Of a DNA stretch of 31,554 bases, positions 2,059-30,402 are shown piece by piece. A program made the position numbers and the translations under genes. Origin of the DNA: a virus; the IMG/VR virus record IMGVR_UViG_3300046002_007711, positions 1-31,554 of that record; one strand, written 5' to 3'. The first letter of the stretch is position 1. The number at the start of each line of letters is the position of its first letter. The notes beneath the pieces were generated by a model, which was given only the letters and a program-made list of their open reading frames with translations, was not told the DNA's origin and did not search any database.

Positions 2059-3774
2059 TTAACCCGGAAATTCAGCTCCTGTTGGTAATAAGATAAAATC
2101 TAATGAAATAAATTCTGCTGTTCTTGTTGGTTGAACATAAATTTGGCCTATTAATTGATTTTGATCAATTACTGCGGGTCCGTTATTTGATTCATCCATT
2201 ACTACTTTAAAAGCATATAATCCTTGTTTTTGTTGGATATTTTCTAAATATGGAGTAACTTTAGCTAAAAATGAGTTTCTTGTTGAGATTGTGTTTTGTT
2301 CAAATAATATTGTATCTGCAATTTGGCGAATATATATTTTTAATTCAAGTAATAAACGTCTTACATTTACACGGTCAAGAGCAGATACTTCTTTTTGTAA
2401 TGTTTTTTGTCCAAATACTACAACACCATTTTTAGGTAATGTAGCTAATGGATTTATATTATTGCTATATAATATATCTTTATTAGCTTGATTTAATAAT
2501 TGTTCAGCTCTTAATACTGTAGATAAACCACCACGATTAATACCTGCTGGAGCAAACCATGGAGCTGCTATTTTATCATTAAATGCATATACTCCGGGAA
2601 TTACAGTTGATGCTGGGGACCAAATTTGTTTTCCTGTTGCTGGGTCTAGTATTTTTACCCAAGGCCAATATGTTGCTGCAAATGAATTATTTATACCTGA
2701 TGCTTGTGTTACTGTAGATGCAACAGTGCTATTATAATCAATTAAGTCTAGTACATATAAATTATCTCCTCTATTTTGAGTATTTGAAACAATTGTATTA
2801 ACTTGAGTAGGATGTTTACTATGTAATAATCCTGGGGTGAATAGTAAATTAAATTGGAATAAATCTTTATTAGAAAATAAAGTAATCATATTATCATAAT
2901 CAGATCCTGCTAATCCTTGTGTTGTTGTGCTTATTAAGTCATACATTGATGCTCCTACATTTGCTGCAATTGTGCCTGTAGCTGAACCAAATGAACCACT
3001 TCCATTTGCTGGTAAAGATCCTGTATATGAGGCATTTGAAATGGTTCCGTTTGAATTTAAATATGTTGGAGTTGAATAATTAACTGATTTAACTCGTACA
3101 TAATTAGAATTATTACTATAATCTCCTGTTAAAGTTATTTGATTAGTAGTAGAATTATATGATTGTTTTTGATCACCAATTATTGTAGAGATATAACGAA
3201 CAGAATTTGGATCTAAATTAACATTATTAAATGATTCAAGTATATTTTTATTACTTGTTGTATCATTTCCTTGTCTAATTAATACATTAAATGTACCTGA
3301 TCCTGTATTTACATTAGTAATTTCAAATCGTATATTATCTCTTGAACCACTAACTAAAGATCCAGACACTTCTGATCCAGAATTATTCATAATAATTCCT
3401 TGTGAAATTGTTTCTAAAACAAATGGAGATAAACCTGTAGTTGGTCCTGATGAACCAGTTGGTATTAAACTAGATGTTGCTGAGGTAAATGATCCACTTG
3501 CTACTCTAGCTACTGTTAAAAGTTTTCCACCATAATTAAAATAATTATAAGCTGCAATTGATGTTAAATATGAATAATCAACACCCCCAGAAACAAAAGA
3601 ATCTCCAAATTTAATTTGAAAATCTGAATAAGAAGTTACTAAAGTTGGGGTTTCGTAAGGACCTTTAACTGTTGGGCCTATTATAGCGGCTCCAGGAAGT
3701 AATGGTTGTCCCGATAAAAATGTTTGATCTAATTCATTAGTTGTTACACCAGGAGATACTGTAAAATTTGCCAT
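2059..3774 (-). CDS. gp18: Tail sheath protein, second copy (571 aa)
   Basis: Contractile sheath subunit of the T4 gp18 / phage tail sheath family. The N-terminus VSPGVTTNELDQTF...GAAIIGPTVKG is the usual sheath opening. The C-terminal third carries the strongly conserved YWPWVKILDP, APWFAPAGINRG, NPLATLPKNGVVVFGQKTLQ and ALDRVNVRRLLLELK blocks, and the chain ends in FILLPTGAEFPG. It aligns end to end with the 699-aa gene immediately upstream but lacks the roughly 130-residue insert that the latter carries after residue 105. The length is close to T4 gp18 (about 660 aa) or slightly shorter. No frameshift or loss of conserved blocks is visible, so both copies look functional. It starts at ATG 3774 after an A-rich leader. 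Confidence 0.93.
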   Translation of the reverse strand: MANFTVSPGVTTNELDQTFLSGQPLLPGAAIIGPTVKGPYETPTLVTSYSDFQIKFGDSFVSGGVDYSYLTSIAAYNYFNYGGKLLTVARVASGSFTSATSSLIPTGSSGPTTGLSPFVLETISQGIIMNNSGSEVSGSLVSGSRDNIRFEITNVNTGSGTFNVLIRQGNDTTSNKNILESFNNVNLDPNSVRYISTIIGDQKQSYNSTTNQITLTGDYSNNSNYVRVKSVNYSTPTYLNSNGTISNASYTGSLPANGSGSFGSATGTIAANVGASMYDLISTTTQGLAGSDYDNMITLFSNKDLFQFNLLFTPGLLHSKHPTQVNTIVSNTQNRGDNLYVLDLIDYNSTVASTVTQASGINNSFAATYWPWVKILDPATGKQIWSPASTVIPGVYAFNDKIAAPWFAPAGINRGGLSTVLRAEQLLNQANKDILYSNNINPLATLPKNGVVVFGQKTLQKEVSALDRVNVRRLLLELKIYIRQIADTILFEQNTISTRNSFLAKVTPYLENIQQKQGLYAFKVVMDESNNGPAVIDQNQLIGQIYVQPTRTAEFISLDFILLPTGAEFPG

Positions 3775-3786
3775 TTTATTTTTTTA

Positions 3787-3797
3787 TTATAAATATT
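3787..3797 (-). promoter_or_regulatory. Recurrent ATATTTATAA element
   Basis: Coding-strand AATATTTATAATAAA, 12 nt before the start at 3774, in the 47-nt gap between the two sheath genes. Confidence 0.4.
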
Positions 3798-3821
3798 GAA
3801 TCTTTTTTTTAAAATGTATTG

Positions 3822-5921
3822 TTATGAAGGAAATGTTGCCCCTGTAGGTAAAATATTAAAATCTAATACAATAAATTCAACTGTTTTTGTTGGTTGTAAA
3901 TAAATTTGACCTACTAATTGATTATTATCTATTACATTAGGAGTATTATTTGATTCATTCATTATTACTCTAAAATCTGTTAAACCTTGTTGTTGTTGTA
4001 TTGATGATAAATAAGGATTAACTTGAGATAAAAAATTATTGCGTGTAATAAGATTATTTTGTTCAAATACTAAACTATCTGCTATTTGAGATATATAATT
4101 TTTTAACTCAATTAGTAAACGTCTTACATTTACACGATCAAGAGCACTTTTTTTCTTTTGTAATGTTTTTTGTCCAAATACTACTACTCCTGTGTTTGGA
4201 AAAGTTGCAATTGAATTTACATTACTTTCATACAAAGTATCTCTATTCCCTTGAGTTAAATAACGCTCTGCTTGTATTACATTACTTAATACACCACGAT
4301 TAATACCTGCTGGAGCAAACCATGGAGCTGCTATTTTATCATTAAATGCATATATTCCAGGGATCATAACAGATGTTGGTACCCAAACTTGATTACCTGT
4401 ATTAGGATCAACGGTTTTTACCCAAGGCCAATATGCTGCTGCATAAGAAGTATTGTAAGTAATTGAATTTATTGTTACTGGGGTTATATTAGAGCCATAT
4501 CCTACAAGATCTAATATAGTCATTGAATCTCCTCTGTCTTGTACTGTATTAAGTAAAAGATTAACAGCATTAGTATGAAGTGGGTAATTTGTTGAATCTG
4601 CTATTAATCCAGGAGCAGTTAATAAATTGTATTTATATGCATCTTTATTAGCAAGTAATGATATTGAAGAGGTATAATCATTTGCAGATAATCCTTGAAT
4701 ACTACTATTTGTAATATTTTCAAAATATTTTCCAGTAGTATTTGGAATATTTTTACCAGTTGCTGTTGCAAATTCACCATTATATAGATATGGAATAGAA
4801 CCAGTAAATTGAGATTTTGAAGCTCCATTATTATCTAAATATTCTGGTGTTGGGAGTAATACATTTTTAACTCTAATATATCTAGATTGGTTTAAAAAAC
4901 TTCCTATAGATTGTAAATAATATTCTCCGTTATCCTCAAGTACTGTTTCTTTTTGATTACCTATTACTTTTTCAACATAATTTGAAGCTAATGGATCTAA
5001 TGATAAATTACTCCAAGTTTCTAAAATTGAAGGAAATAATGATGTGTCATTTCCTTGTCTAATAACTAAAGAAAAAGTTCCATCATTAATATTATTATTA
5101 GTTATTTGCCATCTAAAATTTTCAGAAGAACCACTTAATAACGATCCGTTAGATCCAGTTGGTCCAACACTATTCATAATTTCTCCTTCAGATAAAGTTT
5201 CTAAAGTAAAGGATGTTGTGTTAGTTCCACCAGTAAAATATGTTGTTGAACCAGAATTATGATAAAATAAATTTCCTGCTAATCCGTTAGGATTAATTGA
5301 GGTTAATACTAAATTTGGAGAGGAATTACTTGAACTTATAAATTGTAAAGAAGCACTATAGGGGGCTATTGAACGACTAACATTAAATATTGCAGAAGAA
5401 GTAGTTACATAATCCGCTACTGTTGATGCAGCAAATGAACCTGTTCTAATATAAATTATATTTGATGTGTTTGCAGGTAAAGTTGCTGATCCAGTGTAAA
5501 ATAAAGTAATACCATTTACATTTAAAGATTGAGAACCAACAGATGCTAAACTTGCGGAAATATATGTTAAATTAACTGTTGATGATGCAGAAGTTGCTGC
5601 AATTGAAGAATATATAGAGGATGTTGCTGAAGTAAAGGTTCCACTTACTACACGTGTTACTAGTAATGTATCTCCTCCACTATTAAAATAGTTATATGCT
5701 GCAATAGAGGTAAAATATGTGTAAGTTTGGCTACCACTTAAAAATGTAGAGCCAAATTTATTTAAATAATCACTATAAGTAGTACATAAAACAGGAATAC
5801 CAACTTTACCTTTTGGTGTTGGGCCTATAATAGCGGCACCAGCTTGTATAGGTTGTTGGGTTATAAATGATTGATCATTTTCTATAGCTAATACACCAGG
5901 TGATACGATTGTTTCCGCCAT
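3822..5921 (-). CDS. gp18: Tail sheath protein, first copy with inserted domain (699 aa)
   Basis: Paralogue of the next sheath gene. It shares the VSPGV...GAAIIGPTPKGK opening and the YWPWVKTVDP, APWFAPAGINRG, TGVVVFGQKTLQ and ALDRVNVRRLLIELK blocks, and ends in ILPTGATFPS. Residues about 108-235 (nt 5217-5600) are an insert rich in Ser, Thr, Asn and Ala with alternating beta-type patterns (for example SLNVNGITLFYTGSATLPA and SASLQFISSSN). It is missing from the shorter copy and is probably an extra surface domain on the outer face of the sheath. The C-terminal interlocking domain, which makes sheath-sheath contacts in this family, is conserved in both copies. Start ATG 5921 follows the short leader AACAA. 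Confidence 0.93.
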   Translation of the reverse strand: MAETIVSPGVLAIENDQSFITQQPIQAGAAIIGPTPKGKVGIPVLCTTYSDYLNKFGSTFLSGSQTYTYFTSIAAYNYFNSGGDTLLVTRVVSGTFTSATSSIYSSIAATSASSTVNLTYISASLASVGSQSLNVNGITLFYTGSATLPANTSNIIYIRTGSFAASTVADYVTTSSAIFNVSRSIAPYSASLQFISSSNSSPNLVLTSINPNGLAGNLFYHNSGSTTYFTGGTNTTSFTLETLSEGEIMNSVGPTGSNGSLLSGSSENFRWQITNNNINDGTFSLVIRQGNDTSLFPSILETWSNLSLDPLASNYVEKVIGNQKETVLEDNGEYYLQSIGSFLNQSRYIRVKNVLLPTPEYLDNNGASKSQFTGSIPYLYNGEFATATGKNIPNTTGKYFENITNSSIQGLSANDYTSSISLLANKDAYKYNLLTAPGLIADSTNYPLHTNAVNLLLNTVQDRGDSMTILDLVGYGSNITPVTINSITYNTSYAAAYWPWVKTVDPNTGNQVWVPTSVMIPGIYAFNDKIAAPWFAPAGINRGVLSNVIQAERYLTQGNRDTLYESNVNSIATFPNTGVVVFGQKTLQKKKSALDRVNVRRLLIELKNYISQIADSLVFEQNNLITRNNFLSQVNPYLSSIQQQQGLTDFRVIMNESNNTPNVIDNNQLVGQIYLQPTKTVEFIVLDFNILPTGATFPS

Positions 5922-6280: not shown

Positions 6281-9200
6281 TTATGGTCGTCTAGCGGTTC
6301 TTATCCATATTCCTTCCATATTTACAAAAGTGTCTGCTTGACTGGTACCAATTACTGAAATTGTTGTACCACTTGGATCTTGTGGTTGATGAGTGGCACC
6401 GTAATACCCGGCATATGTAGTGTCTGCATTAATAATAATTATGGTTTGTCCATCTGCTTTAGTAGATGGGTTTGGGAAGTTTATATAATAAGCTCCCCCT
6501 GAATCCATTGTTGTAAAACGATAAACTCCTGGTTCAGATATTGTATAATCGGCACCAACAGTAGTTAAACTTCCTAAAGCATTTTGTGGGATAAAATATC
6601 CGGTTGCAGAAATTGGGTTTGCGGTAATTGTAGTACCGTCAAAAGTAAGTGTACTTGTACCAGCTAATACTCCTGCATTATTATATTGTATTTGAGTATC
6701 CGAACCTGCAGGAGAGGCTGTTCCTAAAAGTGAACCAGTAAATGATGTTGCTGTTAAAGATCCAGAAATATCTACTGTTTTTGCGGCAAAATCACCTTTT
6801 ATCAATGGTGTACCGGAGCCAGAGGCAATATATAGTTTATTGCTTTCTTGAGTGTCAGATGAAGGTCCTGCTCCAAATCCAATTGCTATGTTGTTTGAGG
6901 AACTTCCGGAAAAATTTGATCCCGCATTTTGTCCAAATGCTATATTGTTACATCCTACTGTGTTACAACATAAAGCAGCACGTCCTATTGCTGCATTATT
7001 ACATCCTGTTGTATTAAAAACTAAAGCATTAAATCCTATTGCTGTGTTGTAACATCCTGTTGTGTTATTTTGTAAAGCTGTTCTTCCTATTGCTGCATTG
7101 TAATTTCCTACTGAATTTGAGGTTAAAGTGCGATAACCTAATGCTATGTTGGCGCGTCCTGTTGTATTAGCACGTAAAGAACAATATCCTATTGCTGTAT
7201 TATTAGATCCGGATGTATTAGTACATAAAGCCTGAAGTCCTATTGCTGTGTTAAAGTTTCCTACTGAGTTATTTTTTAAAGAAGTATTTCCTATTGCTGT
7301 ATTGTTACATCCTATTGTATTGGCGCGTAAAGCACAATATCCTATTGCTGTATTGTTAGTTCCTGTTGTATTAGAGTATAAAGCCTGAAGTCCTATTGCG
7401 GCATTGTAGTTTCCTGTTGTATTAGTAAATAAAGCACTATTGCCTATTGCTGTGTTACTACATCCTAATGTGTTACAGCGTAAAGCACTACTTCCTATTG
7501 CTGTATTAGCGGTTCCGGATGTGTTTTTTTCTAAAGCTCTACGTCCTATAGCGGTATTAAGGGTTCCTCCTGTATTAGCACATAAAGCATAACGTCCTAT
7601 TGCTGTGTTGTATCCGCCCGTTGAATTAGAAAATAAAGCACGGTAACCTATTGCTGCATTATGATTTCCTGTTGTATTAGCTCGTAAAGCACATTGACCT
7701 ATTGCTGTATTATTGGATCCGGATGTGTTAGTATATAAAGCTTCAAGTCCAATTGCTGTGTTAAAGTTTCCTACTGAGTTACAGCGTAAAGCATTATTTC
7801 CTAGTGCTGTATTATTGCATCCTATTGTATTACAGCGTAAAGCACGAGATCCTATTGCTGTATTGTTATTTCCTGTTGTATTAATATTTAAAGCATATTG
7901 TCCTATTGATGTGTTGTAACATCCTATTGTATTACAGCGTAAAGAATCTCTTCCTATTGCTGTATTGTTAGTTCCTGTTGTATTTTCGTACAAAGCAGAG
8001 CTTCCTATTGCTACATTGTTTTGTGCTGTTGTGTTTTTAGCTAAAGTAAATCGTCCTATTGCTGTATTATGAAGTCCTGTTGTGTTAGAACATAAACTAT
8101 ATTGACCTATTGCTATATTATATGCTGTTGTATTAGCTTGTAAAGCTTTATTTCCTATCGCTACATTATTGGATCCGGATGTATTAGTACATAGAGCTTC
8201 AAATCCTATTGCTGTATTAAAGTTTCCTACTGAATTTGATCTTAAAGCACGATTACCTATTGCTGTATTATTGCATCCTATTGTATTAGAACATAAAGCA
8301 TATGGTCCTATTGCTGCATTGTTGCATCCTGTTGTGTTAGCTCCTAAAGCACTTCTTCCTATTGCTGTATTATTGGATCCTGATGTGTTAGTGCACATAG
8401 CAAGAGTTCCTATTGCTGTATTGTGGGATCCTACTGAGTTACAACCTAAAGCAGTATTTCCTATTGCTGTATTGCTTTGTCCTGTTGTATTAAGGCATAA
8501 AGCAGCTTTTCCTATTGCTGTATTGCTTTGTCCTGTTGTGTTAGCACATAAAGCAAAAAGTCCTATTGCTGTGTTATATTGTCCTGTTGTATTATTTCTT
8601 AAAGCATTTTGACCTATTGCTGCATTAAAAGATCCGGATGTATTACTATTTAAAGCATAATGTCCTATTGCTGTGTTATGGTTTCCTACTGAATTAGAGA
8701 GTAAAGCACGATAACCTATTGCTGTATTGCATCCTCCTATTGTATTATTATTTAAAGCACTTCTTCCTATTGCTGTATTGCTAGCTCCTGTTGTATTAGT
8801 AGTTAAAGCATAATGTCCTATTGCTGTATTGTGGCGTGCTGTAGTATTACAGCATAACGCTTTACGTCCTATTGCTGTATTATAGTTTCCTGTTGTATTA
8901 GCGCGTAAAGCATATTGTCCTATTGCTGTATTATAGTTTCCTGTTGTATTACAAGCTAAAGTATAACGTCCTATTGCTGTGTTATTAGATCCAGAATTTA
9001 GGCGTAAAGCATTATTTCCTATTGCTGTATTGTTGGTTCCTGTTGTATTAGCACATAAAGCTTGATATCCTATTGCTGTATTGTTATTTCCTGTTGTATT
9101 ATAGCGTAAAGCACAAAATCCTATTGCTGTGTTGAAGCATCCAGTGTCGTTACTTTGTAAAGCACTCTGGCCTATCCCAACATTCCTGTTTCCTGTTGTG

Positions 9201-12200
9201 TTAGAGAGTAAAGCCTGGAATCCTATTGCTGTATTATGAATTCCTGTTGTATTATTGCGTAAAGTATAACATCCTATTGCTGTATTGTTGCATCCTGTTG
9301 TATTAGCTTGTAAAGCATATTGTCCTATTGCTGTATTGTTGCATCCTGTTGTATTAGTTCGTAAAGCACAACATCCTATTGCTGTATTGTTGCATCCTGT
9401 TGTATTATTGCGTAAAGCAGTAAAACCTATTGCTGTATTAAAGTTTCCTGTTGTATTAGCTCTTAAAGCACATTGACCTATTGCTGTATTGTTAGATCCG
9501 GATGTGTTAGTGTATAAAGCTTCAAGTCCAATTGCTGTATTAAAGTTTCCTACTGAATTTGATCTTAAAGCACGATTACCTATTGCTGTATTATTGCATC
9601 CTATTGTGTTAGCTTGTAAAGAGCCAGATCCTATTGCGGTATTAAAGCATGCTGTTGTATTATAAAATAATGCACAATGTCCTATTGCTGTATTGTGAAG
9701 TCCTGTTGAATTTTTACATAAAGCTTGACATCCGATTGCTATGTTAAAGTTTCCAAATGTGTTATTTACTAAAGTATCACGTCCTATTGCTATATTGTTA
9801 CATCCTGAGCAGTTATTAAGTAAAGCAAATGATCCTAATCCTATATTATTGTATCCTGATGAATTACTAAGTAAAGTGCTACGTCCTATTGCTATATTGT
9901 AGCGTCCTGTTGTGTTAATTTTTAAAGCACCATAACCTATTGCTGTATTGGCGTTTCCTGTTGTATTATCGCGTAAAGCTTGACGACCTATTGCTTGATT
10001 GTCACAACCTGTTGTATTAGCTCGTAAAGCACATTGACCTATTGCTGTGTTATAGGCTCCTGTTGTATTTTTAGATAAAGATCCACTTCCTGCTGCAAAA
10101 TTATGTGTACCTGTTGCAGAGGAGCTAAAGTTTGTTGTTGCACCAATTGAGATATTTGTAGAAATATTTCCACCACCTGTGCTAATAAGTAAATTGTTAA
10201 TTGAACCTGTTACACCTAAAGATCCTGTTATTTGAGCGGATCCTGTGAATGGAAATGCTGCACCCCCTGCACTTGGGGCCCATGAAGCAGATACAGCAAA
10301 TGAAGCAGTACCAAACAATGATCCGGTGAAACCTGCTGTTGCAATAACGCTACCTGTTACTTGAACTTGAGAGCCTGAAGCAAAGATTAGATTTGATCTT
10401 GCTGCACCTGATACACCATTACCTACTATAAATGCAGATTGAGCTGAGGATTCTATGTTATATTGCCCTTGTACGTGTTGGTTTGATCCAGATGCTATTG
10501 TACCCCAACCTTCTGCGTGTGAATAGTCTCCTAAAGCTATGGTATCATGACCTTCTGCGTGTGAGAATACTCCGGTTGATGTTGAACCACCACCTTCTGC
10601 GTGTGAGAATGCTCCGGTTGATGTTGTACTACCACCTTCTGCGTGTGAGTGTTGTCCGGTTGCTATTGAACCAGCACCTTCTGCGTGTGAGCCATCTCCG
10701 GTTGCTGATGTACTACCGCCTTCTGCATGTGAATAGGCTCCTGAAGCTGTTACGTCAGAGCCTTGAGCATGAGCAAATAGTCCGGATGCTAAAGATGCAG
10801 ATCCTTGGTTGAATGATCCAGTTACTCCTAACGACCCTGTAATTTGAGCTGATCCGGTAAATGGAAAGGCAGGTGCATATGAAGCACTTAGTGCTTGTGT
10901 TGCATATGAAGCTGTTCCTAAAAGTGAACCCGTAAGAGATGTTGCTGTTAAAGAACCGGAAATATTTACTGTTTTTGCTGCAAAATCACCTTTTATCAGT
11001 GGTGTGCCGGAACCAGAGGCAATATATAGTTTGTTGCTTTCATCTGTAAATGTTGAAGGGCCAGCTCCAAATCCAATTGCTATATTGTTTGAGGAACTTC
11101 CGGAAAATAAACATCCTGCATTTTGTCCAAATGCTATATTATTTGATCCTGAAGTATTAATACATAAAGCATTTTGTCCTATTGCTGTATTATGTACTCC
11201 GGTTGTGTTAGATTCTAAAGCTCTATATCCAATTGCGGTATTATATCCTCCGGTTGTATTTTGTTGTAAAGCAGATATTCCTATTGCTGTGTTGTAGTTT
11301 CCTGTTGTGTTAGCATATAAAGCACTATTTCCTATTGCTGTATTATTAAGTCCTGTTGTATTATAGCGTAAAGCATTTATTCCTATTGCTGTATTGTAGT
11401 TTCCTGTTGTATTGCTATTTAAAGCATTATTTCCTATTGCTGTGTTGTTGTTTCCTGTTGTATTAAAAGTTAAAGCAAAACCTCCTATTGCTGTATTGTA
11501 GTTTCCTGTTGCATTGGAATTTAAAGTATTACGTCCTATTGCTGTATTGTCGGTTCCTGTTGTATTATAGCCTAAAGCACATATTCCTATTGCTGTGTTA
11601 TGGGATCCTGATGTATTAGAGTATAAAGTACAAAATCCTATTGCTGTGTTGTGGGATCCTGATGTGTTAAATTGTAAAGCAGATTGTCCTATTGCTGTAT
11701 TATCGCATCCTCTTATATTATAGAATAAAGCTTGACTTCCTATTGCTGTGTTGCCATTTCCTGTTAAATTATCCGATAAAGCAGCCTTTCCTAGTGCTAT
11801 ATTGTTGTTTCCTGTTGTATTATGAAGTAAAGCACCATTTCCTATTGCTGTGTTGTAGTTTCCTGTTGTGTTAGTAGATAAAGCACTATTTCCTATTGCT
11901 GTGTTGCTGTTTCCTGTTGCAGAGGAACTAAAGGCTGTTGTTGCACCAATTGAAATGTTTGAGGAAATGTTTCCTCCACCTGTGCTTATAAGTAAATTGT
12001 TAATTGAACCTGTAACACCTAAAGATCCTGTTATTTGTGCGGATCCTGTGAATGGAAATGCAGGTGTGGATGGTGCATATGAAGCACTTAGTGCTTGTGT
12101 TGCATATGAAGCAGTACCGGTTAATGTTCCTGTAAATGAACCACTGAATGATCCAGTGTTTGAAAGGAATTGATCTACTCTATTTGCTGTTACAATAAGT

Positions 12201-12883
12201 GAAGGAATTCCTGGTACTATTCCAAATGCTGGTTCTGCATGTAAACGAACGTTTGCATCTGGTGAATACCACATTAATTGAAAGTAATCACCTGCGGCCG
12301 CATTTACAAAGAAATTCCATGCTGCTACATAATGAGCTCCATTACCAGTTAATTGTACTGATGTTGCTGTATCTGATAAATCGGTACCGTTTTTTCTAAT
12401 CCATATCCATATCTCATCGGTTCCACTATCTGTTTTATCTACTTGAGCAGAAAATTGTATATCATATACTCCAGCATTTTCTGTTTTAATATATGTGTTG
12501 TATGGATTAGTTGAACCGGAAATAGATACTCCGTTTGTAATGTCTGTTATATTAAGTGACATTGATCTAGCTGTACCCGCTACATTTGTTTGTGTTTGTG
12601 TAGAATAGAAGCTACCATATGAGCCTGTTGCTGTATTAAAATTTGTACTTCCACTTAATGTAGCACTAACTGTTACTTGACCTAAACCATTGGTTGGTGA
12701 TAATGTAACATTTGGACCTGCTAATAGTTGTGTAACACCACCATTTAAAGCATATGAAGCACTTAATGCTTGAGTTGCATATGAAGCGGTTCCTAAAAGT
12801 GATCCAGTTATACCGTTTGATACGATAAGTGAATTTAGTGAGGCATTTGAGCCTGATACAACTACTTTATTCCAGTTTGGCAT
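6281..12883 (-). CDS. Giant repeat fibre/adhesin protein, 2200 aa
   Basis: The opening MPNWNKVVVSGSNASLNSL matches the start of the 482-aa fibre gene and probably anchors the fibre. Next comes a jelly-roll-like domain at about 95-235 (MSLNITDITNGVSISG, EIWIWIRKNGTDL, GDYFQLMWYSPDAN). Two cassettes follow. Each has an N-cap (FPFTGSAQITGSLGVTGS), an array of 17-residue NTAIG repeats and a C-cap (SNNIAIGFGAGPS, SNKLYIASGSGTPLIKGDF). Array 1 is residues 322-593 (16 copies) and array 2 is residues 923-1991 (63 copies). Between them lies a patch of 14-residue SHAEG repeats. A small beta domain ends in EGIWIRTARRP. The repeats resemble Hep_Hag/YadA-head beta-rolls and NTAIG proteins of Bacteroidota. 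The likely role is a trimeric fibre for host binding. No S74-type intramolecular chaperone is seen. Array 2 is rich in cysteine. Confidence 0.88.
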   Translation of the reverse strand: MPNWNKVVVSGSNASLNSLIVSNGITGSLLGTASYATQALSASYALNGGVTQLLAGPNVTLSPTNGLGQVTVSATLSGSTNFNTATGSYGSFYSTQTQTNVAGTARSMSLNITDITNGVSISGSTNPYNTYIKTENAGVYDIQFSAQVDKTDSGTDEIWIWIRKNGTDLSDTATSVQLTGNGAHYVAAWNFFVNAAAGDYFQLMWYSPDANVRLHAEPAFGIVPGIPSLIVTANRVDQFLSNTGSFSGSFTGTLTGTASYATQALSASYAPSTPAFPFTGSAQITGSLGVTGSINNLLISTGGGNISSNISIGATTAFSSSATGNSNTAIGNSALSTNTTGNYNTAIGNGALLHNTTGNNNIALGKAALSDNLTGNGNTAIGSQALFYNIRGCDNTAIGQSALQFNTSGSHNTAIGFCTLYSNTSGSHNTAIGICALGYNTTGTDNTAIGRNTLNSNATGNYNTAIGGFALTFNTTGNNNTAIGNNALNSNTTGNYNTAIGINALRYNTTGLNNTAIGNSALYANTTGNYNTAIGISALQQNTTGGYNTAIGYRALESNTTGVHNTAIGQNALCINTSGSNNIAFGQNAGCLFSGSSSNNIAIGFGAGPSTFTDESNKLYIASGSGTPLIKGDFAAKTVNISGSLTATSLTGSLLGTASYATQALSASYAPAFPFTGSAQITGSLGVTGSFNQGSASLASGLFAHAQGSDVTASGAYSHAEGGSTSATGDGSHAEGAGSIATGQHSHAEGGSTTSTGAFSHAEGGGSTSTGVFSHAEGHDTIALGDYSHAEGWGTIASGSNQHVQGQYNIESSAQSAFIVGNGVSGAARSNLIFASGSQVQVTGSVIATAGFTGSLFGTASFAVSASWAPSAGGAAFPFTGSAQITGSLGVTGSINNLLISTGGGNISTNISIGATTNFSSSATGTHNFAAGSGSLSKNTTGAYNTAIGQCALRANTTGCDNQAIGRQALRDNTTGNANTAIGYGALKINTTGRYNIAIGRSTLLSNSSGYNNIGLGSFALLNNCSGCNNIAIGRDTLVNNTFGNFNIAIGCQALCKNSTGLHNTAIGHCALFYNTTACFNTAIGSGSLQANTIGCNNTAIGNRALRSNSVGNFNTAIGLEALYTNTSGSNNTAIGQCALRANTTGNFNTAIGFTALRNNTTGCNNTAIGCCALRTNTTGCNNTAIGQYALQANTTGCNNTAIGCYTLRNNTTGIHNTAIGFQALLSNTTGNRNVGIGQSALQSNDTGCFNTAIGFCALRYNTTGNNNTAIGYQALCANTTGTNNTAIGNNALRLNSGSNNTAIGRYTLACNTTGNYNTAIGQYALRANTTGNYNTAIGRKALCCNTTARHNTAIGHYALTTNTTGASNTAIGRSALNNNTIGGCNTAIGYRALLSNSVGNHNTAIGHYALNSNTSGSFNAAIGQNALRNNTTGQYNTAIGLFALCANTTGQSNTAIGKAALCLNTTGQSNTAIGNTALGCNSVGSHNTAIGTLAMCTNTSGSNNTAIGRSALGANTTGCNNAAIGPYALCSNTIGCNNTAIGNRALRSNSVGNFNTAIGFEALCTNTSGSNNVAIGNKALQANTTAYNIAIGQYSLCSNTTGLHNTAIGRFTLAKNTTAQNNVAIGSSALYENTTGTNNTAIGRDSLRCNTIGCYNTSIGQYALNINTTGNNNTAIGSRALRCNTIGCNNTALGNNALRCNSVGNFNTAIGLEALYTNTSGSNNTAIGQCALRANTTGNHNAAIGYRALFSNSTGGYNTAIGRYALCANTGGTLNTAIGRRALEKNTSGTANTAIGSSALRCNTLGCSNTAIGNSALFTNTTGNYNAAIGLQALYSNTTGTNNTAIGYCALRANTIGCNNTAIGNTSLKNNSVGNFNTAIGLQALCTNTSGSNNTAIGYCSLRANTTGRANIALGYRTLTSNSVGNYNAAIGRTALQNNTTGCYNTAIGFNALVFNTTGCNNAAIGRAALCCNTVGCNNIAFGQNAGSNFSGSSSNNIAIGFGAGPSSDTQESNKLYIASGSGTPLIKGDFAAKTVDISGSLTATSFTGSLLGTASPAGSDTQIQYNNAGVLAGTSTLTFDGTTITANPISATGYFIPQNALGSLTTVGADYTISEPGVYRFTTMDSGGAYYINFPNPSTKADGQTIIIINADTTYAGYYGATHQPQDPSGTTISVIGTSQADTFVNMEGIWIRTARRP
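6713..6910 (-). repeat. C-cap module of giant fibre, copy 2
   Basis: Encodes the roughly 66-residue closing module after the 63-copy array (SNNIAIGFGAGPS, ESNKLYIASGSGTPL, IKGDFAAKTVDISGSLTATS). It is nearly identical in protein, and very similar in DNA, to 10907-11104. Confidence 0.85.
6911..10117 (-). repeat. 63-copy array of 51-bp (17-aa) repeats
   Basis: Direct tandem repeat with consensus T-T-G-x-N-N-T-A-I-G-x-x-A-L-x-x-N. The span of 3207 nt equals 61 units of 51 bp plus two of 48 bp (units 23 and 40 lack one residue). Every unit keeps the frame. Positions 4, 11-12 and 15-16 vary and often hold Cys. A three-unit super-repeat (T-I-G-C / S-V-G-N / T-S-G-S) recurs, for example at 9455-9607, 8132-8284, 7676-7828 and 7166-7318. 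Confidence 0.95.
10118..10258 (-). repeat. N-cap module of giant fibre, copy 2
   Basis: Encodes AFPFTGSAQITGSLGVTGS, INNLLISTGGGNISTNISIG and ATTNFSSS ahead of the 63-copy array. It is nearly identical to 11921-12061, differing at only a few residues. Confidence 0.85.
10500..10785 (-). repeat. 42-bp (14-aa) SHAEG repeats
   Basis: Six copies of G-x-x-S-H-A-E-G-x-x-(T/S)-x-(A/S)-(T/S) at about 42-nt spacing; the complement CCTTCTGCGTGTGA recurs near 10509, 10551, 10593, 10635, 10677 and 10719. Degenerate units flank it (FAHAQGSDVTAS, NQHVQGQYNIES). This is a typical beta-roll (YadA-head/Hep_Hag style) segment between the two cassettes. Confidence 0.9.
10907..11104 (-). repeat. C-cap module of giant fibre, copy 1
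   Basis: Closing module after the 16-copy array, paired with 6713-6910. It differs mainly at TFTDES versus SDTQES and NISG versus DISG. Confidence 0.85.
11105..11920 (-). repeat. 16-copy array of 51-bp (17-aa) repeats
   Basis: Exactly 816 nt = 16 x 51, running from ATGNSNTAIG to the terminal unit NIAFGQNAGCLF. It has the same consensus as the 63-copy array but only about five cysteines. Confidence 0.95.
11921..12061 (-). repeat. N-cap module of giant fibre, copy 1
   Basis: Opening module of the first cassette, paired with 10118-10258. The DNA is almost unchanged over the INNLLISTGGGNIS coding part. Confidence 0.85.
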
Positions 12884-20896: not shown

Positions 20897-21595
20897 CTAT
20901 GCTCTAAGGTTTTTATATATGTCTAAAATATATTCTACAATTTCGTGTCTGTGATTTTTTTCTAAGGTAATTACCTCAAATCCAGGTACATCTTTCATAT
21001 GTTTACATACAACATCAAATCCAGAAGATTTACGATCTTTTAAGTCAATTTGGGCACCATCACCACAAAATACCATTTTTGAACCATGGCATATACGAGT
21101 TAATAAAAGTTCCATTTGTGTATCTGTTAAGTTTTGAGCTTCATCAATTACAACTAAACAATTTGTAAAATTTCTACCACGCATAAACGATACAGGAACA
21201 ATTTCAATTTCACCATCTGCTATACATTTTTCAATTTTTTCTTTATTGTATAGGCGATGCATATTTTCATATACAGGAGCAGTAAATGGAGCTAATTTTT
21301 CGTTTACATCTCCTGGCAGGAATCCAATATCTTGTCCTGCTACTACAGTTGGACGAGTAATGATTATTTTTTCAATTTCTCTACTAAAAAGTAAATCTAA
21401 AGCAATATTTGCTGCTAATAGCGATTTACCAGATCCAGCTTTACCTTTTAAAACAGTTACAGTGTTGTAAAGAATTTGTTCTTTAGCACGTTTTTGCTCT
21501 TCGTTTAATTGGATGTTAAATCTAATGGGACCTTTTGGTTTTCTTTTTTCTTGAAAAACCTTTTTTGCTTCCGGAGTTCGGTTAAAATCATTCAT
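20897..21595 (-). CDS. phoH: PhoH-like P-loop ATPase
   Basis: 232 aa, complete. Walker A is GKAGSGKS (residues 51-58), Walker B LVVIDEAQ (about 147-154), and the GDGAQIDL (178-185) and EKNHRH (212-217) motifs match PhoH proteins. The ITRPTVVAGQDIGFLPGD segment (79-96) is another family hallmark. PhoH ATPases bind and hydrolyse ATP and are linked to RNA metabolism; host PhoH is phosphate-starvation-induced. The gene is very common in phages, but its job there is unknown. Here it is wedged between the capsid and neck genes, just after a terminator and with its own AT-rich element, so it can be expressed apart from the capsid gene. No KH or PIN domain is fused. Confidence 0.93.
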   Translation of the reverse strand: MNDFNRTPEAKKVFQEKRKPKGPIRFNIQLNEEQKRAKEQILYNTVTVLKGKAGSGKSLLAANIALDLLFSREIEKIIITRPTVVAGQDIGFLPGDVNEKLAPFTAPVYENMHRLYNKEKIEKCIADGEIEIVPVSFMRGRNFTNCLVVIDEAQNLTDTQMELLLTRICHGSKMVFCGDGAQIDLKDRKSSGFDVVCKHMKDVPGFEVITLEKNHRHEIVEYILDIYKNLRA

Positions 21596-21610
21596 ATAAC
21601 TATATTTGTT

Positions 21611-21620
21611 GATAAATATT
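21611..21620 (-). promoter_or_regulatory. Variant AATATTTATC element before phoH
   Basis: Coding-strand AATATTTATCAAC, about 15 nt before ATG 21595 and downstream of the terminator. It has one change (TATC for TATA) from the other copies. Confidence 0.3.
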
Positions 21621-21630
21621 AGTAAAAGAC

Positions 21631-21656
21631 TAAAAAAGCCGAACTTTCGTTCGGCT
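21631..21656 (-). terminator. Rho-independent terminator after major capsid gene
   Basis: Perfect 8-bp stem AGCCGAAC/GTTCGGCT with a GAAA tetraloop, then TTTTTTAG on the minus strand. It starts 25 nt after the capsid stop codon. The plus strand is also T-rich, but no plus-strand gene approaches it. Confidence 0.88.
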
Positions 21657-21680
21657 CTTTATTTTAGTTAAAATTAACTA

Positions 21681-23393
21681 TTAGATACTAGCTAAATCAT
21701 TAACAAATACACGACCAAAGAATTCTGGACGGATCATTTTCTTAGCGTAACGAGTCAATAAACCTTTACGTGGAGTAAATGTTACTGGATCGTACACAAG
21801 AGGTGTCATGATTAACGGTACATATGGAGCAAATACAGCACCAGTTTCAAGGAATTGAGCTCCTCTATAACCCATCAAAATAACGTTTTCTGTCATGTAA
21901 GGGTTTTTGTAAACTGTGTAACGGCTGTTAAATTGACCTGCTTTTTGGATACCAAAAGCATATGAACCTTTAGTAACATCACCATCTGAAGATGAAGCAA
22001 ATCCTGGGATTGATTCAATGATAGTTGCTACTGCTGGGGAACATACTAAGAAATTAGCACCACCTCTAAGAGTCTTTTGGTGAATCTTATTGCTTACTTT
22101 TTGGAATTTAGTACCTAAAGTTTGGAACCACTGACCTTGTGTGTTGTAGAATCCTGTTTGAGAAACAGATGTTGGTGTTTCCCAAGCTGTTCTTGCAGCA
22201 TTTAGGTTATTATTGTTTTTAGCTGACCAATACTCATCTGCAGCAGAAGCATCTTGGATTAACATATCTAAGTTTTCAAGATCTATTTCTAGAGCAATAT
22301 ATTCAGACATGATTGATGTTAATTCAGCTTCAGCATCTAATGATTGGTATGCGTTTAAATCCTGTGCAAATTCTGGTGTCCATTGTGCTTTTAACTTACG
22401 AGTTTTAGCAACAATAGCTTCAGATTTCATTTGGATATTGATTTCTGGGATAGCTAATGCATCTGTTGATGTTGAGTTGGCATTATAATATCCTCCTCCA
22501 TTTTTATCTTCAAAATCACCACGTGTATTATCTGCAGGTTGTTTGTTATACCAAACTGTGTTAGTACCACCATTCAATGGAAGGATTGCACCTACGTTAA
22601 CTGAACCTGAAGCGATAAAGTATACGTTAGTACCATCAGTAGAAGTATATTGAGGTAAATAACGTAATTGTTGAGCAGCAGTTAAAACAGATCCTGAAGC
22701 AACAACAAATGCACGAACACCTTTAAGATCTGAACCAGATAATGAAGTTACAGGGACTGCAACTTTAGAGTAGGAGTTAGTTGCAATTGAAGCTGATAAT
22801 GTTGAATCATAATCTACATCTGCCCAAGAAGCTGTAGTTACTGTAGTAGTTACAGAAGCTGAGAATTGGTTGATTGAGAATGCAAATCGACCAGCACCAT
22901 ATAAACCTTGAGATGCATCAGCATTTGCTCCTGGGTCTGTGTTACCGTACATTGAAGAAGTAGCACCATAAGTATTTCCAGCAGGACCAAAAGGACCTGT
23001 TGGAGCATTTTTCCCATCTGGATCACCATATTGGAAATCTAAGAAAAATACAAGACCTGAAGGTAGATTCATTGGTTGTACAGACATGAATTCTTTAGTT
23101 GATAAAGAACCAAATACTTTACGTACCAATGGAAGAGCTACACCAGCCCATTGTTCACCTTGACCAGCTGTAAAACTGCCTTGAGTACCTGCTCCACCTG
23201 TTGATGATTGCTCAGTTACTAACTGTTTTGCTTGGTTTTCGAGGATCATAGCCATGTTATTTTTGTTAACTTCGCTACCAAGTCCCTCTAAGAGACCTGT
23301 TTTACCCCATTTTGATGCCATTCTAGCGGCATCGTTCTGCATGTTTTTCCATCCGGAAGCAGAACTTTCGAGTAATGAATTAATTGTTGACAT
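21681..23393 (-). CDS. gp23: Major capsid protein (T4 gp23 family)
   Basis: 570 aa (T4 gp23 is 521). Landmarks are KNNMAMILENQAKQLVTEQ near residue 44, GVALPLVRKVFGSLSTKEFM, SVQPMNLPSGLVFFLDFQYG, AIPEINIQMKSEAIVAKTRK with LKAQWTPEFAQDLNAYQSLD, and the C-terminal ENVILMGYRGAQFLETGAVF, APYVPLIMTP. These define the gp23-type HK97-fold subunit that forms the capsid hexamers. The N-terminus should be a delta region removed by the prohead protease; LLE-G at residues 34-37 fits the T4 (I/L)xE cleavage rule (inference). A Gly/Asn-rich stretch at about 150-310 replaces the T4 insertion domain. It is bounded by its own terminator and follows the scaffold gene by 29 nt. No separate gp24-type vertex gene is seen here. 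Confidence 0.93.
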   Translation of the reverse strand: MSTINSLLESSASGWKNMQNDAARMASKWGKTGLLEGLGSEVNKNNMAMILENQAKQLVTEQSSTGGAGTQGSFTAGQGEQWAGVALPLVRKVFGSLSTKEFMSVQPMNLPSGLVFFLDFQYGDPDGKNAPTGPFGPAGNTYGATSSMYGNTDPGANADASQGLYGAGRFAFSINQFSASVTTTVTTASWADVDYDSTLSASIATNSYSKVAVPVTSLSGSDLKGVRAFVVASGSVLTAAQQLRYLPQYTSTDGTNVYFIASGSVNVGAILPLNGGTNTVWYNKQPADNTRGDFEDKNGGGYYNANSTSTDALAIPEINIQMKSEAIVAKTRKLKAQWTPEFAQDLNAYQSLDAEAELTSIMSEYIALEIDLENLDMLIQDASAADEYWSAKNNNNLNAARTAWETPTSVSQTGFYNTQGQWFQTLGTKFQKVSNKIHQKTLRGGANFLVCSPAVATIIESIPGFASSSDGDVTKGSYAFGIQKAGQFNSRYTVYKNPYMTENVILMGYRGAQFLETGAVFAPYVPLIMTPLVYDPVTFTPRKGLLTRYAKKMIRPEFFGRVFVNDLASI

Positions 23394-23412
23394 TGTTTTG
23401 TTTTTTGTTTTT

Positions 23413-23420
23413 AATTTATA
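23413..23420 (-). promoter_or_regulatory. TATAAATT box before capsid gene
   Basis: Coding-strand TATAAATT, one base from the T4 late promoter TATAAATA, 19 nt before the capsid ATG in a 29-nt AT-only gap. It is a candidate late promoter for strong capsid expression. Confidence 0.35.
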
Positions 23421-23422
23421 AT

Positions 23423-24634
23423 TTAAATAATTCCAGCCAATTTTTGCATTCTTAAAAATGCCTCGTTTGACTCTACGATTGGTTTTTTAACGTTAGGTGC
23501 CATTGTTCCTTTTGAAGCTCTACCTAGGTTTTCGTTAATAGTATTTTTTGAAACTTTGATTCCCTCATTTAATGTTTCAAATACCATTTTTACTTCACCT
23601 ACGTTTTTAGCTTTGTCAAAAGAACTTAACACTTTTACTTTTTGATTTTCATTTAAAGTTTTAGACTTGAAGATTTTGTTTGTGTAAAGCAATTTAGCAT
23701 TTAACAAATTAATCTCGTTTAATTCAGACTTTAAAGTTTCAATAGTAGAATAAGCTTCTTCAAGATCTCCTGAACCACCCATTCCTGTATCACTGATATC
23801 TTTTCCAGTTTTAACTGCGGAATCGTACCATTGTTTCCATTTTGGGTCTGTTTCTGCTCTTTTTTTAGCATATTCCTGAGCTTTTCTTACTCCAAAAGAT
23901 GCAGAAAAAAGTGCAACCATACCTGCTATTACAGCAATTATTGAAACGGGTTCTTCATTAAGAGAAGTAGTTGATGATTCCATTAATTGATCTTCAATAG
24001 CTTTCATTTTTTTAAAATCTGGATCTGAAAAATCTGAATCTACTTCATTAACTGGTTTTTCGTTATCTTCCATTTCTTCAATTTCTCTTAACAATTCTGC
24101 TAAATCTACTTCTTCGTCTTCAGGTTCCATTTCCATGTCCATGTCCATTTCATCTTCTTTACTTTCGGAACCAGCTTCAAGTTCACCTGATTTGATCATG
24201 TCTGCGATTACATCTTCAATCATTGATTTTAGATCTTCATCTGTCATGTCTTCAAGGTCGATTGGTTCGCCTTCATCTTCTGTTTCTTCTTCGTCAGACA
24301 TTTCCATGTCTTCTTCATTTTCTTCAGCTTCATAAAGACCTTCTTCCATTTTGTCCTCTTTTTCTAATTCAGCCAAAAGCTCTTCTAAATCAACTTCTTC
24401 CATTGTATCTTTTTCATCATACATTTCTTTAAGATTTTCATCTTCTTCGGACATATATGTTTCTTCAAAATTGTCCTCTTCGAGGTCCATTTCTTGAAGT
24501 TTCATTGATAACATTGACTTAAGTTGAGGTGTGAAGGCTTCTTCTAGGGCTGCTTTTGCGTTTGCTATTGCTGTTTCTTTTACAGCTTTAGCGTCAGCGA
24601 TTGCTTCTTTAAGCATTGCTCTGTTTGTTGCCAT
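23423..24634 (-). CDS. Prohead core scaffold protein (T4 gp22-like)
   Basis: 403 aa. Residues 45-200 are extremely acidic (runs such as EENEEDMEMSDEEETEDEGE and DEMDMDMEMEPEDEEVDLAE), flanked by helical ends. This is the usual composition of the T4-type scaffold, which fills the prohead and is later digested. The C-terminal third (LEEAYSTIETLKSELNEINL, LNAKLLYTNKIF, KVKVLSSFDKAKNVGEVKM, then FLRMQKLAGII) matches the gp22-like helical region. It lies between the protease and capsid genes, exactly as in T4. Odd point: residues 230-249 (SIIAVIAGMVALFSASFGV core) form a 20-residue uncharged hydrophobic segment followed by RKAQEYAKKR, like a membrane helix, which T4 gp22 is not known to have. Start ATG 24634 has AGGA 5 nt upstream. 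Confidence 0.85.
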   Translation of the reverse strand: MATNRAMLKEAIADAKAVKETAIANAKAALEEAFTPQLKSMLSMKLQEMDLEEDNFEETYMSEEDENLKEMYDEKDTMEEVDLEELLAELEKEDKMEEGLYEAEENEEDMEMSDEEETEDEGEPIDLEDMTDEDLKSMIEDVIADMIKSGELEAGSESKEDEMDMDMEMEPEDEEVDLAELLREIEEMEDNEKPVNEVDSDFSDPDFKKMKAIEDQLMESSTTSLNEEPVSIIAVIAGMVALFSASFGVRKAQEYAKKRAETDPKWKQWYDSAVKTGKDISDTGMGGSGDLEEAYSTIETLKSELNEINLLNAKLLYTNKIFKSKTLNENQKVKVLSSFDKAKNVGEVKMVFETLNEGIKVSKNTINENLGRASKGTMAPNVKKPIVESNEAFLRMQKLAGII

Positions 24635-24773
24635 TTTTTTCCTAAATTTAATTTTGTTGGGAAAGTACGTTTATTTAAAAAACGTAATAGATATTCATTT
24701 AATTAATACCATATATGTTGAGGGGGATGGTATATTCTAGTATACGTATGTATAAGATTATTAAAGTCGCGTT
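24635..24773 (-). promoter_or_regulatory. Longest gap in the head operon, upstream of scaffold
   Basis: 139 nt without a gene. It holds the AGGA ribosome site (24640-24643), a 7-bp inverted repeat TACGTTT/AAACGTA with 7-nt loop (24666-24686), an ATACGTAT palindrome (24742-24749), and several TATA-rich stretches. None matches the ATATTTATAA element exactly. A promoter for the scaffold-capsid pair is likely here by position, since these two are needed in large amounts. Confidence 0.4.
24640..24643 (-). promoter_or_regulatory. Ribosome binding site AGGA for scaffold gene
   Basis: TTTAGGAAAAAAATG: AGGA 5 nt before ATG 24634. Confidence 0.5.
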
Positions 24774-25406
24774 TTAAAATAAAGGACAAGTTCCTTTTGC
24801 GCAAAGAATTTCGGTAATAATTGAGTTGGTTTTTGAATATGGGTCTAAAAATGTAGTACGTGATTCATTTAATGCACCATTTTTCATCCATGAATCTGGA
24901 TTTGAAGGGTTTGAGACTAAATCCCATGTTAATAGTTCAAAATCATCTTGTACCTCCATTACTTCACCCATTTGTTTTAATGAGCCCATTCCACGAGAGG
25001 AAATACCAATAACTAAGCCATTTTTAACTAATGCTCCTGCAATACGACCTGAGGTAGTGCCTTTATCACCCATGTCACAGAATATTTCTACTTTGCCATG
25101 GATTTCATCTCCAACCCACCATAAATCACGAACGGCATGAGATGCATTTTTTAAATTAATTACTTGAGAATCGGGGTGGTCTAGTTCACCTACAGTTTCT
25201 GTAGATTTTTGTTTAATTTTATTTTGAAAATTTTCAATTTCACGATCCCATAACTCTTTTTTATAGTATCTTCCATTACCATTTTTTACTTCAACAGTAG
25301 CTAAAATACCTTCAACAAATACATTACCACCATTACCCATTCCTTCAATTAAGCGAACTGGTTTTGGGGTAAATTGTCTGGTTTCTATTAAAAGTTCTTT
25401 GTTCAT
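24774..25406 (-). CDS. gp21: Prohead core protease (T4 gp21 family)
   Basis: 210 aa, the same size as T4 gp21 (212). This serine protease digests the scaffold and trims the capsid proteins before packaging. Visible motifs are VEGILATVEVKNGNGRYYKK (residues 31-50), TVGELDHPDSQVINL with the catalytic His77, VRDLWWVGDEIHGKVEIF, and GRIAGALVKNGLVIGISSRG with the catalytic Ser136. All of these are typical of the herpesvirus/T4-type prohead proteases. The Leu/Ile-x-Glu site near the C-terminus (IITE, 196-199) could be a self-cleavage point (inference). It is adjacent to the scaffold gene as in T4 and starts 1 nt after the stop of the 587-aa gene. Confidence 0.92.
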   Translation of the reverse strand: MNKELLIETRQFTPKPVRLIEGMGNGGNVFVEGILATVEVKNGNGRYYKKELWDREIENFQNKIKQKSTETVGELDHPDSQVINLKNASHAVRDLWWVGDEIHGKVEIFCDMGDKGTTSGRIAGALVKNGLVIGISSRGMGSLKQMGEVMEVQDDFELLTWDLVSNPSNPDSWMKNGALNESRTTFLDPYSKTNSIITEILCAKGTCPLF

Positions 25407-25407
25407 C

Positions 25408-27171: not shown

Positions 27172-27173
27172 TT

Positions 27174-27605
27174 TTATTTACTTAATAGTTCTTTTGCTTT
27201 TTTAATATATTCTAAGGCCATTGATGTAGGTTTGTATACGCTAAATTGGCCTGGGTTTGCTGTATAGTATTCTATGGTTTGGTTTTTTGCGTTTGAGATA
27301 AGAGAATTTAGTTCGTTTTGTATTTCATCAAATTCGTTTAATCTTGCTTCTTGAAATTTTTTAACATCTGTTTTTTCTTTTTCTTCTTCCCAAAGTTGTT
27401 TAACTTGTAAACTAGATCCTTTAATTTTATTAGGTACAGGTTTATAACCTAATTTGTAATAATATTTAGGTGGTTTTGAAGTTTTAGAAAAAGCAAATGG
27501 AGTAGCATATGTTTCACCACTTCCCGCACTAAAAGAAGAACCGCCTTGATTAGTAGCGGACATTTCTTTTAATTTTTTTCTAATTATTTCTTTAAGATTA
27601 CTCAT
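27174..27605 (-). CDS. Unassigned head-region protein, 143 aa
   Basis: Function not recognised. A basic helix (SNLKEIIRKKLKEMS) is followed by a Gly/Ser/Ala-rich linker (GGSSFSAGSGETYATPFAF), a Lys/Tyr/Pro-rich stretch (KPPKYYYKLGYKPVPNKIKG) and a long charged helical C-terminus. Its start overlaps the end of the 285-aa gene by 8 nt (ATGAGTAA), so the two are probably translationally coupled. By position it could be a prohead core component like T4 gp67/68, but it shows no specific similarity that I can see. Confidence 0.7.
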   Translation of the reverse strand: MSNLKEIIRKKLKEMSATNQGGSSFSAGSGETYATPFAFSKTSKPPKYYYKLGYKPVPNKIKGSSLQVKQLWEEEKEKTDVKKFQEARLNEFDEIQNELNSLISNAKNQTIEYYTANPGQFSVYKPTSMALEYIKKAKELLSK

Positions 27606-28455: not shown

Positions 28456-28470
28456 TCTATTATATTTGTT

Positions 28471-28484
28471 TATTTATAAATATA
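28471..28484 (-). promoter_or_regulatory. Candidate late promoter with TATAAATA
   Basis: Coding-strand TATATTTATAAATA. This copy of the recurrent element also contains the exact T4 late promoter box TATAAATA in the direction of transcription (plus-strand TATTTATA 28471-28478). It lies in the 39-nt gap after the portal gene. Confidence 0.45.
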
Positions 28485-28494
28485 TGGAGCTTAT

Positions 28495-30393: not shown

Positions 30394-30402
30394 GATTTGT
30401 TT

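What the first reader, a model, noticed from the sequence alone, without database searches (positions are those of the whole stretch)
6911..10117. 63-copy in-frame 17-residue repeat array in a phage fibre
Directly countable: 3207 nt = 61 units of 51 bp plus two of 48 bp, consensus TTGxNNTAIGxxALxxN. If each unit is one turn of a beta-roll or beta-helix at about 0.48 nm, the array would be a rod of about 30 nm, and the 16-copy array about 8 nm. Because the unit length is a multiple of three, slippage or recombination changes fibre length without breaking the frame. This points to a length-variable adhesin on a T4-type virion.
Basis: partly seen in the sequence, partly recalled or inferred. Interest (0 to 1): 0.75.

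Follow-up and report, generated by a model that had tools for sequence, protein, structure and literature searches.

The report
Long repeat rod in phage fibre
A virus that probably infects Bacteroidota bacteria carries a large tail-associated protein with 63 copies in a row of a 17-amino-acid building block, which probably stack into a stiff rod about 28-30 nm long; this kind of repeat is common in phages, giant viruses and bacteria, so the find is a large example of something known, with an unusual richness in cysteine as its one odd feature.

Summary
Observation confirmed. The gene is on the minus strand (12883..6281, 2200 aa). Its 63-unit array (61 x 51 nt + 2 x 48 nt, 6911-10117) and a 16-unit array are real, in frame, and identical in a second contig. 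The same 17-residue repeat occurs in 130 phage records, giant viruses and Bacteroidota proteins (up to 120 units), and PHROGs matches it strongly. It is a new member of a known kind.

The neighbourhood is T4-type (terminase, portal, protease, gp23-like capsid, PhoH, contractile sheath); the nearest isolate is a Flavobacterium phage. AlphaFold2 gives a regular beta-solenoid with one strand per unit. Handedness is not trustworthy: a YadA-like control array was not recovered correctly.

"Length-variable" is half right. Relatives differ by whole units (-44, +17, -9, +1, +1). But neighbouring units are no more alike than random ones, and a near-identical genome has the same count. This argues against ongoing slippage and suggests occasional block recombination.

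Unexpected: all 55 cysteines of the protein lie in the 17-residue-unit regions, nearly all at variable positions. Viral arrays have a median of 7.6% Cys at those positions, bacterial ones 0%. This is unexplained.

The parts
6281..12883 (-). Modular fibre-like protein, 2200 aa
   Evidence: single open frame; PHROG 23837, 6002 and 4636, E down to 7e-294
6911..10117 (-). Array 2: 63 units of the 17-residue repeat (residues 923-1991), 61 x 51 nt + 2 x 48 nt
11105..11920 (-). Array 1: 16 units of the same repeat (residues 322-593)
10448..10795 (-). Third array of 14-residue YadA-head-type repeats (SHAEG.....ATG)
   Evidence: Pfam YadA_head E 7e-4, below its gathering score; phmmer to the BpaC structure 7o23, E 1.9e-7
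11921..12058 (-). N-terminal linker and cap of array 1 (FPFTGSAQITGSLGVTGSINNLLISTGGGNIS.NISIGATT.FSSSATG)
   Evidence: duplicated before array 2, 135 of 150 nt identical
10118..10255 (-). N-terminal linker and cap of array 2
10964..11104 (-). C-terminal cap of array 1 (SGSSSNNIAIGFGAGPS...SNKLYIASGSGTPLIKGDFAAKTV)
   Evidence: duplicated after array 2, 209 of 258 nt identical; same cap in relatives
6770..6910 (-). C-terminal cap of array 2
12173..12640 (-). N-terminal globular domain, C1q/TNF-like by annotation of its hits (residues 82-237)
   Evidence: tblastn hits annotated 'complement C1q-like protein 3 roll fold' and 'cerebellin-1 domain'; domain shared with L091/L092, which lack the array
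6284..6751 (-). C-terminal domain (residues 2045-2200), possible tip
   Evidence: conserved in L082 and L163 at 82-89%; function inferred only
12825..12883 (-). N-terminal motif MPNWNKVVVSGSNASLNSL, possible virion anchor, resembling the start of ORF 13448-14896 (MATWKKVIVSGSTANLANV)
   Evidence: sequence
2059..5921 (-). Context: two adjacent tail sheath paralogues
   Evidence: Pfam PF17482/PF04984; phrog_23, E 1e-64 and 6e-70
20897..31554 (-). Context: PhoH, gp23-like capsid, maturation protease, portal, terminase

Best explanation
The gene encodes a large modular fibre-like structural protein of a T4-type phage that probably infects Bacteroidota. The 17-residue units most likely stack one per turn into a beta-solenoid, giving a stiff rod of about 28-30 nm (63 turns at 0.44-0.48 nm), with a second rod of about 7-8 nm. 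N- and C-terminal caps close each rod and globular domains lie at both ends. The framework residues (N, A, I, G, L) hold the solenoid. Six variable positions per turn form a long, patterned surface that may contact the host or only space the tip from the virion. Array length changes between lineages by rare recombination of whole-unit blocks, not by frequent slippage. Shown: the repeat, its conservation, the whole-unit differences. Predicted: the solenoid. Inferred: virion location, adhesion, trimer.
For: Array and count. PHROG structural and tail-spike families. T4-type neighbourhood, capsid 59% identical to Flavobacterium phage immuto, which has syntenic head genes and a tail spike with a short stretch of the repeat. 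AlphaFold2 on the last 8 units plus cap, 41-row alignment: pLDDT mostly 76-89 over the array, ten strands at 17-residue spacing. BFVD models of the same repeat agree (TM 0.76-0.79, rmsd about 2). Whole-unit offsets against homologues: L133 -44 units (2238 nt = 42 x 51 + 2 x 48); L147 +17, -9, +1, +1 units. Selection pattern in aligned homologous units: 17 nonsynonymous of 330 framework codons against 39 of 180 variable codons. No excess likeness of neighbours; two-unit cassette SVG->TSGS, 6 of 6, 0 of 200,000 shuffles. A published prasinovirus FhaB model is a 30-48-strand solenoid of 13.6-21.2 nm, about 0.44 nm per strand (PMC12906663).
Against: No experiment shows that the protein is in the virion or binds anything. 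The monomer prediction has modest confidence, and a control on the YadA-type array fitted right-handed solenoids better (rmsd 2.5-3) than left-handed ones (about 7), so handedness from this pipeline is unreliable. No solved structure matches at E<0.001. The direction of the length changes (gain or loss) is unknown. The record is a 31.5-kb fragment.
Confidence: 0.7

Rival explanations
1. The arrays are true YadA-type left-handed beta-rolls: a trimeric head in which each 17-residue unit is a longer form of the 14-residue Ylhead repeat.
For: The unit core NTAIG resembles YadA's NSVAIG motif (named in a reference title in PMC2942831). A 14-residue YadA-type array lies in the same protein.
Against: Pfam YadA_head does not detect the 17-residue array even at E 10. 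The model shows one strand per unit, whereas the 14-residue control shows about two strands per unit.
Confidence: 0.3
2. Active length-switching adhesin: replication slippage changes copy number within the population and tunes reach or host range.
For: Unit length is a multiple of three; homologous arrays differ by whole units, including two single-unit steps. [quoted passage not shown] 1996, seen only as a citation).
Against: Neighbouring units are not more alike than random. Count unchanged in L086. P-SSM2 and P-SSM5 fibre genes have the same length to within 1 nt.
Confidence: 0.12
3. Passive spacer: the array only sets the distance of the tip domain and its variable positions drift without a binding role.
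For: Framework strongly kept, variable positions change freely. Related phages carry the same N-terminal domain without the array (L091/L092).
Against: Variable positions are not free: acidic residues and Lys are avoided, Cys and Arg enriched; a two-unit cassette is kept in order.
Confidence: 0.4
4. Assembly artefact with a wrong repeat count.
For: Metagenome contig with a 3.2-kb tandem array.
Against: Longest exact repeat 77 nt; second contig identical through the gene.
Confidence: 0.03

Closest known systems
PHROG 23837 / 6002 / 4636 (virion structural protein, tail spike protein)
   Same: Same repeat, E 7e-294 to 3e-238, many stretches
   Different: Window array is longer and more regular than the isolate-phage arrays examined (up to 33 units in L242)
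Tail fibres of pelagiphages HTVC111P/112P, Methylophilales phage Venkman, cyanophage P-SSM2, Flavobacterium phage immuto
   Same: 17-residue units with the NTAIG-like core
   Different: Fewer units (about 5-33); Venkman ends in Peptidase_S74, the window protein has no Pfam S74 match
FhaB-like adhesion proteins of giant viruses (Bodo saltans virus; prasinoviruses)
   Same: BFVD structural match with 43% identity to the Bodo saltans virus protein; the published prasinovirus model is a long single-sheet solenoid
   Different: I did not check that the prasinovirus proteins carry this exact repeat
Bacteroidota surface-type proteins with the same repeat (for example Flavobacterium fontis L259, Bacteroidetes MAG L251)
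   Same: Same 17-residue unit, 44 and 120 units
   Different: Many end in an S74-like chaperone tail; almost no Cys in the arrays
YadA / BpaC trimeric autotransporter heads
   Same: The SHAEG array of this protein matches
   Different: The 17-residue arrays do not match the Pfam model; no autotransporter anchor seen

Membership tests
Phage 17-residue-repeat fibres (PHROG 23837/6002/4636) | significant match to the family profile over the repeat | tested here: met
   E 7.4e-294, 2.5e-282, 3.2e-238
YadA-like head (PF05658) - 17-residue arrays | match to the Pfam YadA_head model | tested here: not met
   no match even at E 10 for the 207-aa array segment
YadA-like head (PF05658) - 17-residue arrays | left-handed parallel beta-roll | tested here: inconclusive
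   the model fits right-handed helices, but the YadA-type control behaved the same way
YadA-like head (PF05658) - 14-residue SHAEG array | sequence match to YadA-type heads | tested here: met
   phmmer to 7o23 (BpaC) E 1.9e-7 and 1p9h E 0.001; Pfam 20.3 bits, below its cut-off of 25
Trimeric autotransporter adhesin | C-terminal YadA membrane anchor | tested here: not met
   no Pfam match for the whole protein or for the C-terminal domain
Trimeric autotransporter adhesin | homotrimer | not testable with these tools
   only monomers can be predicted here
T4-type myovirus | gp17, gp20, gp21, gp23 homologues and a contractile sheath | tested here: met
   PHROGs 2, 213, 207, 138 and 23; sheath Pfam

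The most novel reading that the evidence does not exclude
Viral arrays of this repeat have been shaped into Cys- and Arg-rich, acid-poor rods, with cysteine at the variable positions. They would be assembled reduced inside the cell and could cross-link by disulfides, or bind metal or thiols, after release. This chemistry is nearly absent from the bacterial versions of the same repeat.
Probability: 0.25. Interest if true: 0.6.

Novelty: new member of a known kind. Interest (0 to 1): 0.32.

Why it matters
The repeat is widespread but poorly described: neither Pfam nor NCBIfam has a model that matches it. This example gives a clean system to test how far a repeat rod sets fibre reach, and the relatives show whole-unit length differences that can be compared. 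The cysteine bias in viral but not bacterial copies is a concrete, testable puzzle about how phage fibres are stabilised.

Tried and rejected
Paper search for the motif 'NTAIG' matched only ordinary words such as Montaigne. Searches for phage tail fibre with beta-solenoid and AlphaFold, and for tandem-repeat copy-number variation in phage adhesins, found no paper. A ladder of cysteines at the same position in successive turns was tested and rejected (8 neighbours against 8.3 expected). Diversity-generating mutagenesis was considered because variable codons end mostly in T or C; I did not pursue it (the variation lies among 63 units within one gene, and I noticed no reverse transcriptase among the window ORFs, but did not search for one). 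Foldseek against the PDB gave no match below E 0.001. YadA-type structures did not appear among the top 50 rows for either the 17-residue or the 14-residue model, which is why I do not use the structural search to decide handedness. The first alignment for structure prediction (A1) was out of register and was replaced by A2.

Full report
What is there. The window is a 31.5-kb virus record. Its ORF 12883..6281 on the minus strand encodes 2200 residues. A 16-unit array precedes it (11105-11920). Between them lies a third array of 14-residue SHAEG repeats (10448-10795), which the finding did not mention. Tandem Repeats Finder gives the same period of 51 for both 17-residue arrays. Only one frame is open through the array.

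Architecture. From the N-terminus: a short motif resembling the start of the neighbouring ORF 13448-14896; a globular domain whose hits are annotated as C1q-like; a linker and cap; array 1; a cap; the SHAEG array; a linker and cap; array 2; a cap; a C-terminal domain.

Is the count real? The longest exact repeat in the array is 77 nt, so ordinary reads can place the units. Contig L086, 99.86% identical over 17,960 nt, has the same gene with no difference. Its 25 mismatches all lie at 4927-5916, in the first sheath gene. The two contigs are separate records, but I do not know whether they come from independent samples.

What kind of phage. Homologues of terminase, portal, maturation protease, gp23-like capsid, PhoH, sheath and tube are present. 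The capsid is closest to Flavobacterium phage immuto (59%), whose head genes have the same order and which carries a short stretch of the repeat in a tail spike. A Bacteroidota host is therefore an inference.

Is the repeat known? Yes. It matches PHROG families of virion structural and tail spike proteins with E down to 7e-294, and 130 phage records. It is also found in predicted structures of giant virus proteins and in bacterial genomes, mostly Bacteroidota, with up to 120 units in one MAG. Pfam and NCBIfam have no model that reports it. Among the loci I fetched, the window array is the longest viral one but not the longest overall.

Structure. AlphaFold2 on the last eight units plus cap, with 41 aligned rows, gives block pLDDT mostly 76-89 through the array and ten strands one unit apart (17 residues, once 18 at the cap). 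BFVD models of the same repeat superpose. VIA-align places it on right-handed parallel beta-helices (Z up to 12.5, about 168 residues, rmsd 3.0). As a control I modelled the SHAEG array, which has sequence relatives of known left-handed structure (YadA, BpaC). It too fitted right-handed helices at rmsd 2.5-3 and left-handed ones only at about 7, and no YadA-type chain was listed. Handedness from this pipeline is therefore not evidence. What survives is a regular solenoid with one strand per unit. At 0.44-0.48 nm per turn, 63 units make 28-30 nm and 16 units 7-8 nm.

Does length vary? Between lineages, yes, in whole units. Blocks of homologous units at 87-93% identity are separated by offsets that equal whole units: L133 lacks 44 units (42 x 51 + 2 x 48 nt) and L147 shows steps of +17 (870 nt, which fits 16 x 51 + 54), -9, +1 and +1. 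The choice of homologous blocks was made after looking at the alignments, and background identity between random units is already 68%, so the smaller blocks are less secure. Within a lineage, no change was seen: L086 is identical, and P-SSM2 and P-SSM5 fibre genes are the same length to within 1 nt. Recent slippage should leave neighbours alike, but neighbours average 0.673 identity against 0.682 +/- 0.006 in shuffles. Instead, the closest pairs sit mostly far apart, and a two-unit cassette (an SVG unit followed by a TSGS unit) occurs 6 of 6 times in order, never reached in 200,000 shuffles. The cassette was noticed before it was tested, so that figure is descriptive. The best four-unit block (mean identity 0.873) lies above the shuffle mean of 0.809 but below the shuffle maximum of 0.892, so block duplication is suggested rather than proven. 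Block recombination fits better than slippage.

Selection. In 30 homologous unit pairs picked for similarity, framework columns carry 17 nonsynonymous and 18 synonymous codon changes in 330 codons; variable columns 39 and 14 in 180. No model-based dN/dS was run.

Unexpected. All 55 cysteines of the protein are in unit regions and none in the other 791 residues. Cys is 10.8% of variable-position residues, against 0.33% in 18 other window ORFs. Across 26 viral and 41 bacterial arrays recruited on framework columns only, the median is 7.6% against 0% (Mann-Whitney p 2e-7). Related arrays are not independent, seven viral arrays have 1% or less, and cyanophage P-SSM2, Venkman and a roseophage have none, so this is a feature of part of the viral set. 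Viral arrays are also more basic (median +0.52 against 0.0 per unit). I have no tested explanation.

Verdict.

Noticed in passing
6911-11920 (arrays), with L133, L147, L151, L103 and others: All 55 Cys of the fibre lie in the 17-residue unit regions, nearly all at variable positions; viral arrays have median 7.6% Cys there, bacterial ones 0%. Unexplained.
   Followed up: partly
4927-5916 compared with L086: The only 25 mismatches in 17,960 nt between the window and L086 lie in the first sheath gene, which looks like a recombination tract.
   Followed up: no
2059-3774 and 3822-5921: Two adjacent, different tail sheath genes.
   Followed up: no
10448-10795; L016, L019, L058, L090, L171 and others: SHAEG 14-residue arrays of up to about 20 units are frequent in related viral contigs.
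   Followed up: partly
L251:2643-10535: A Bacteroidetes MAG encodes 120 consecutive units of the same repeat.
   Followed up: no
L243:8494-11777 (P-SSM5): The P-SSM5 homologue of the P-SSM2 fibre gene is split into two ORFs, apparently by a single-base difference.
   Followed up: no
L030:718-4227: Long TGAQGTTG collagen-like repeat region in a related viral contig.
   Followed up: no
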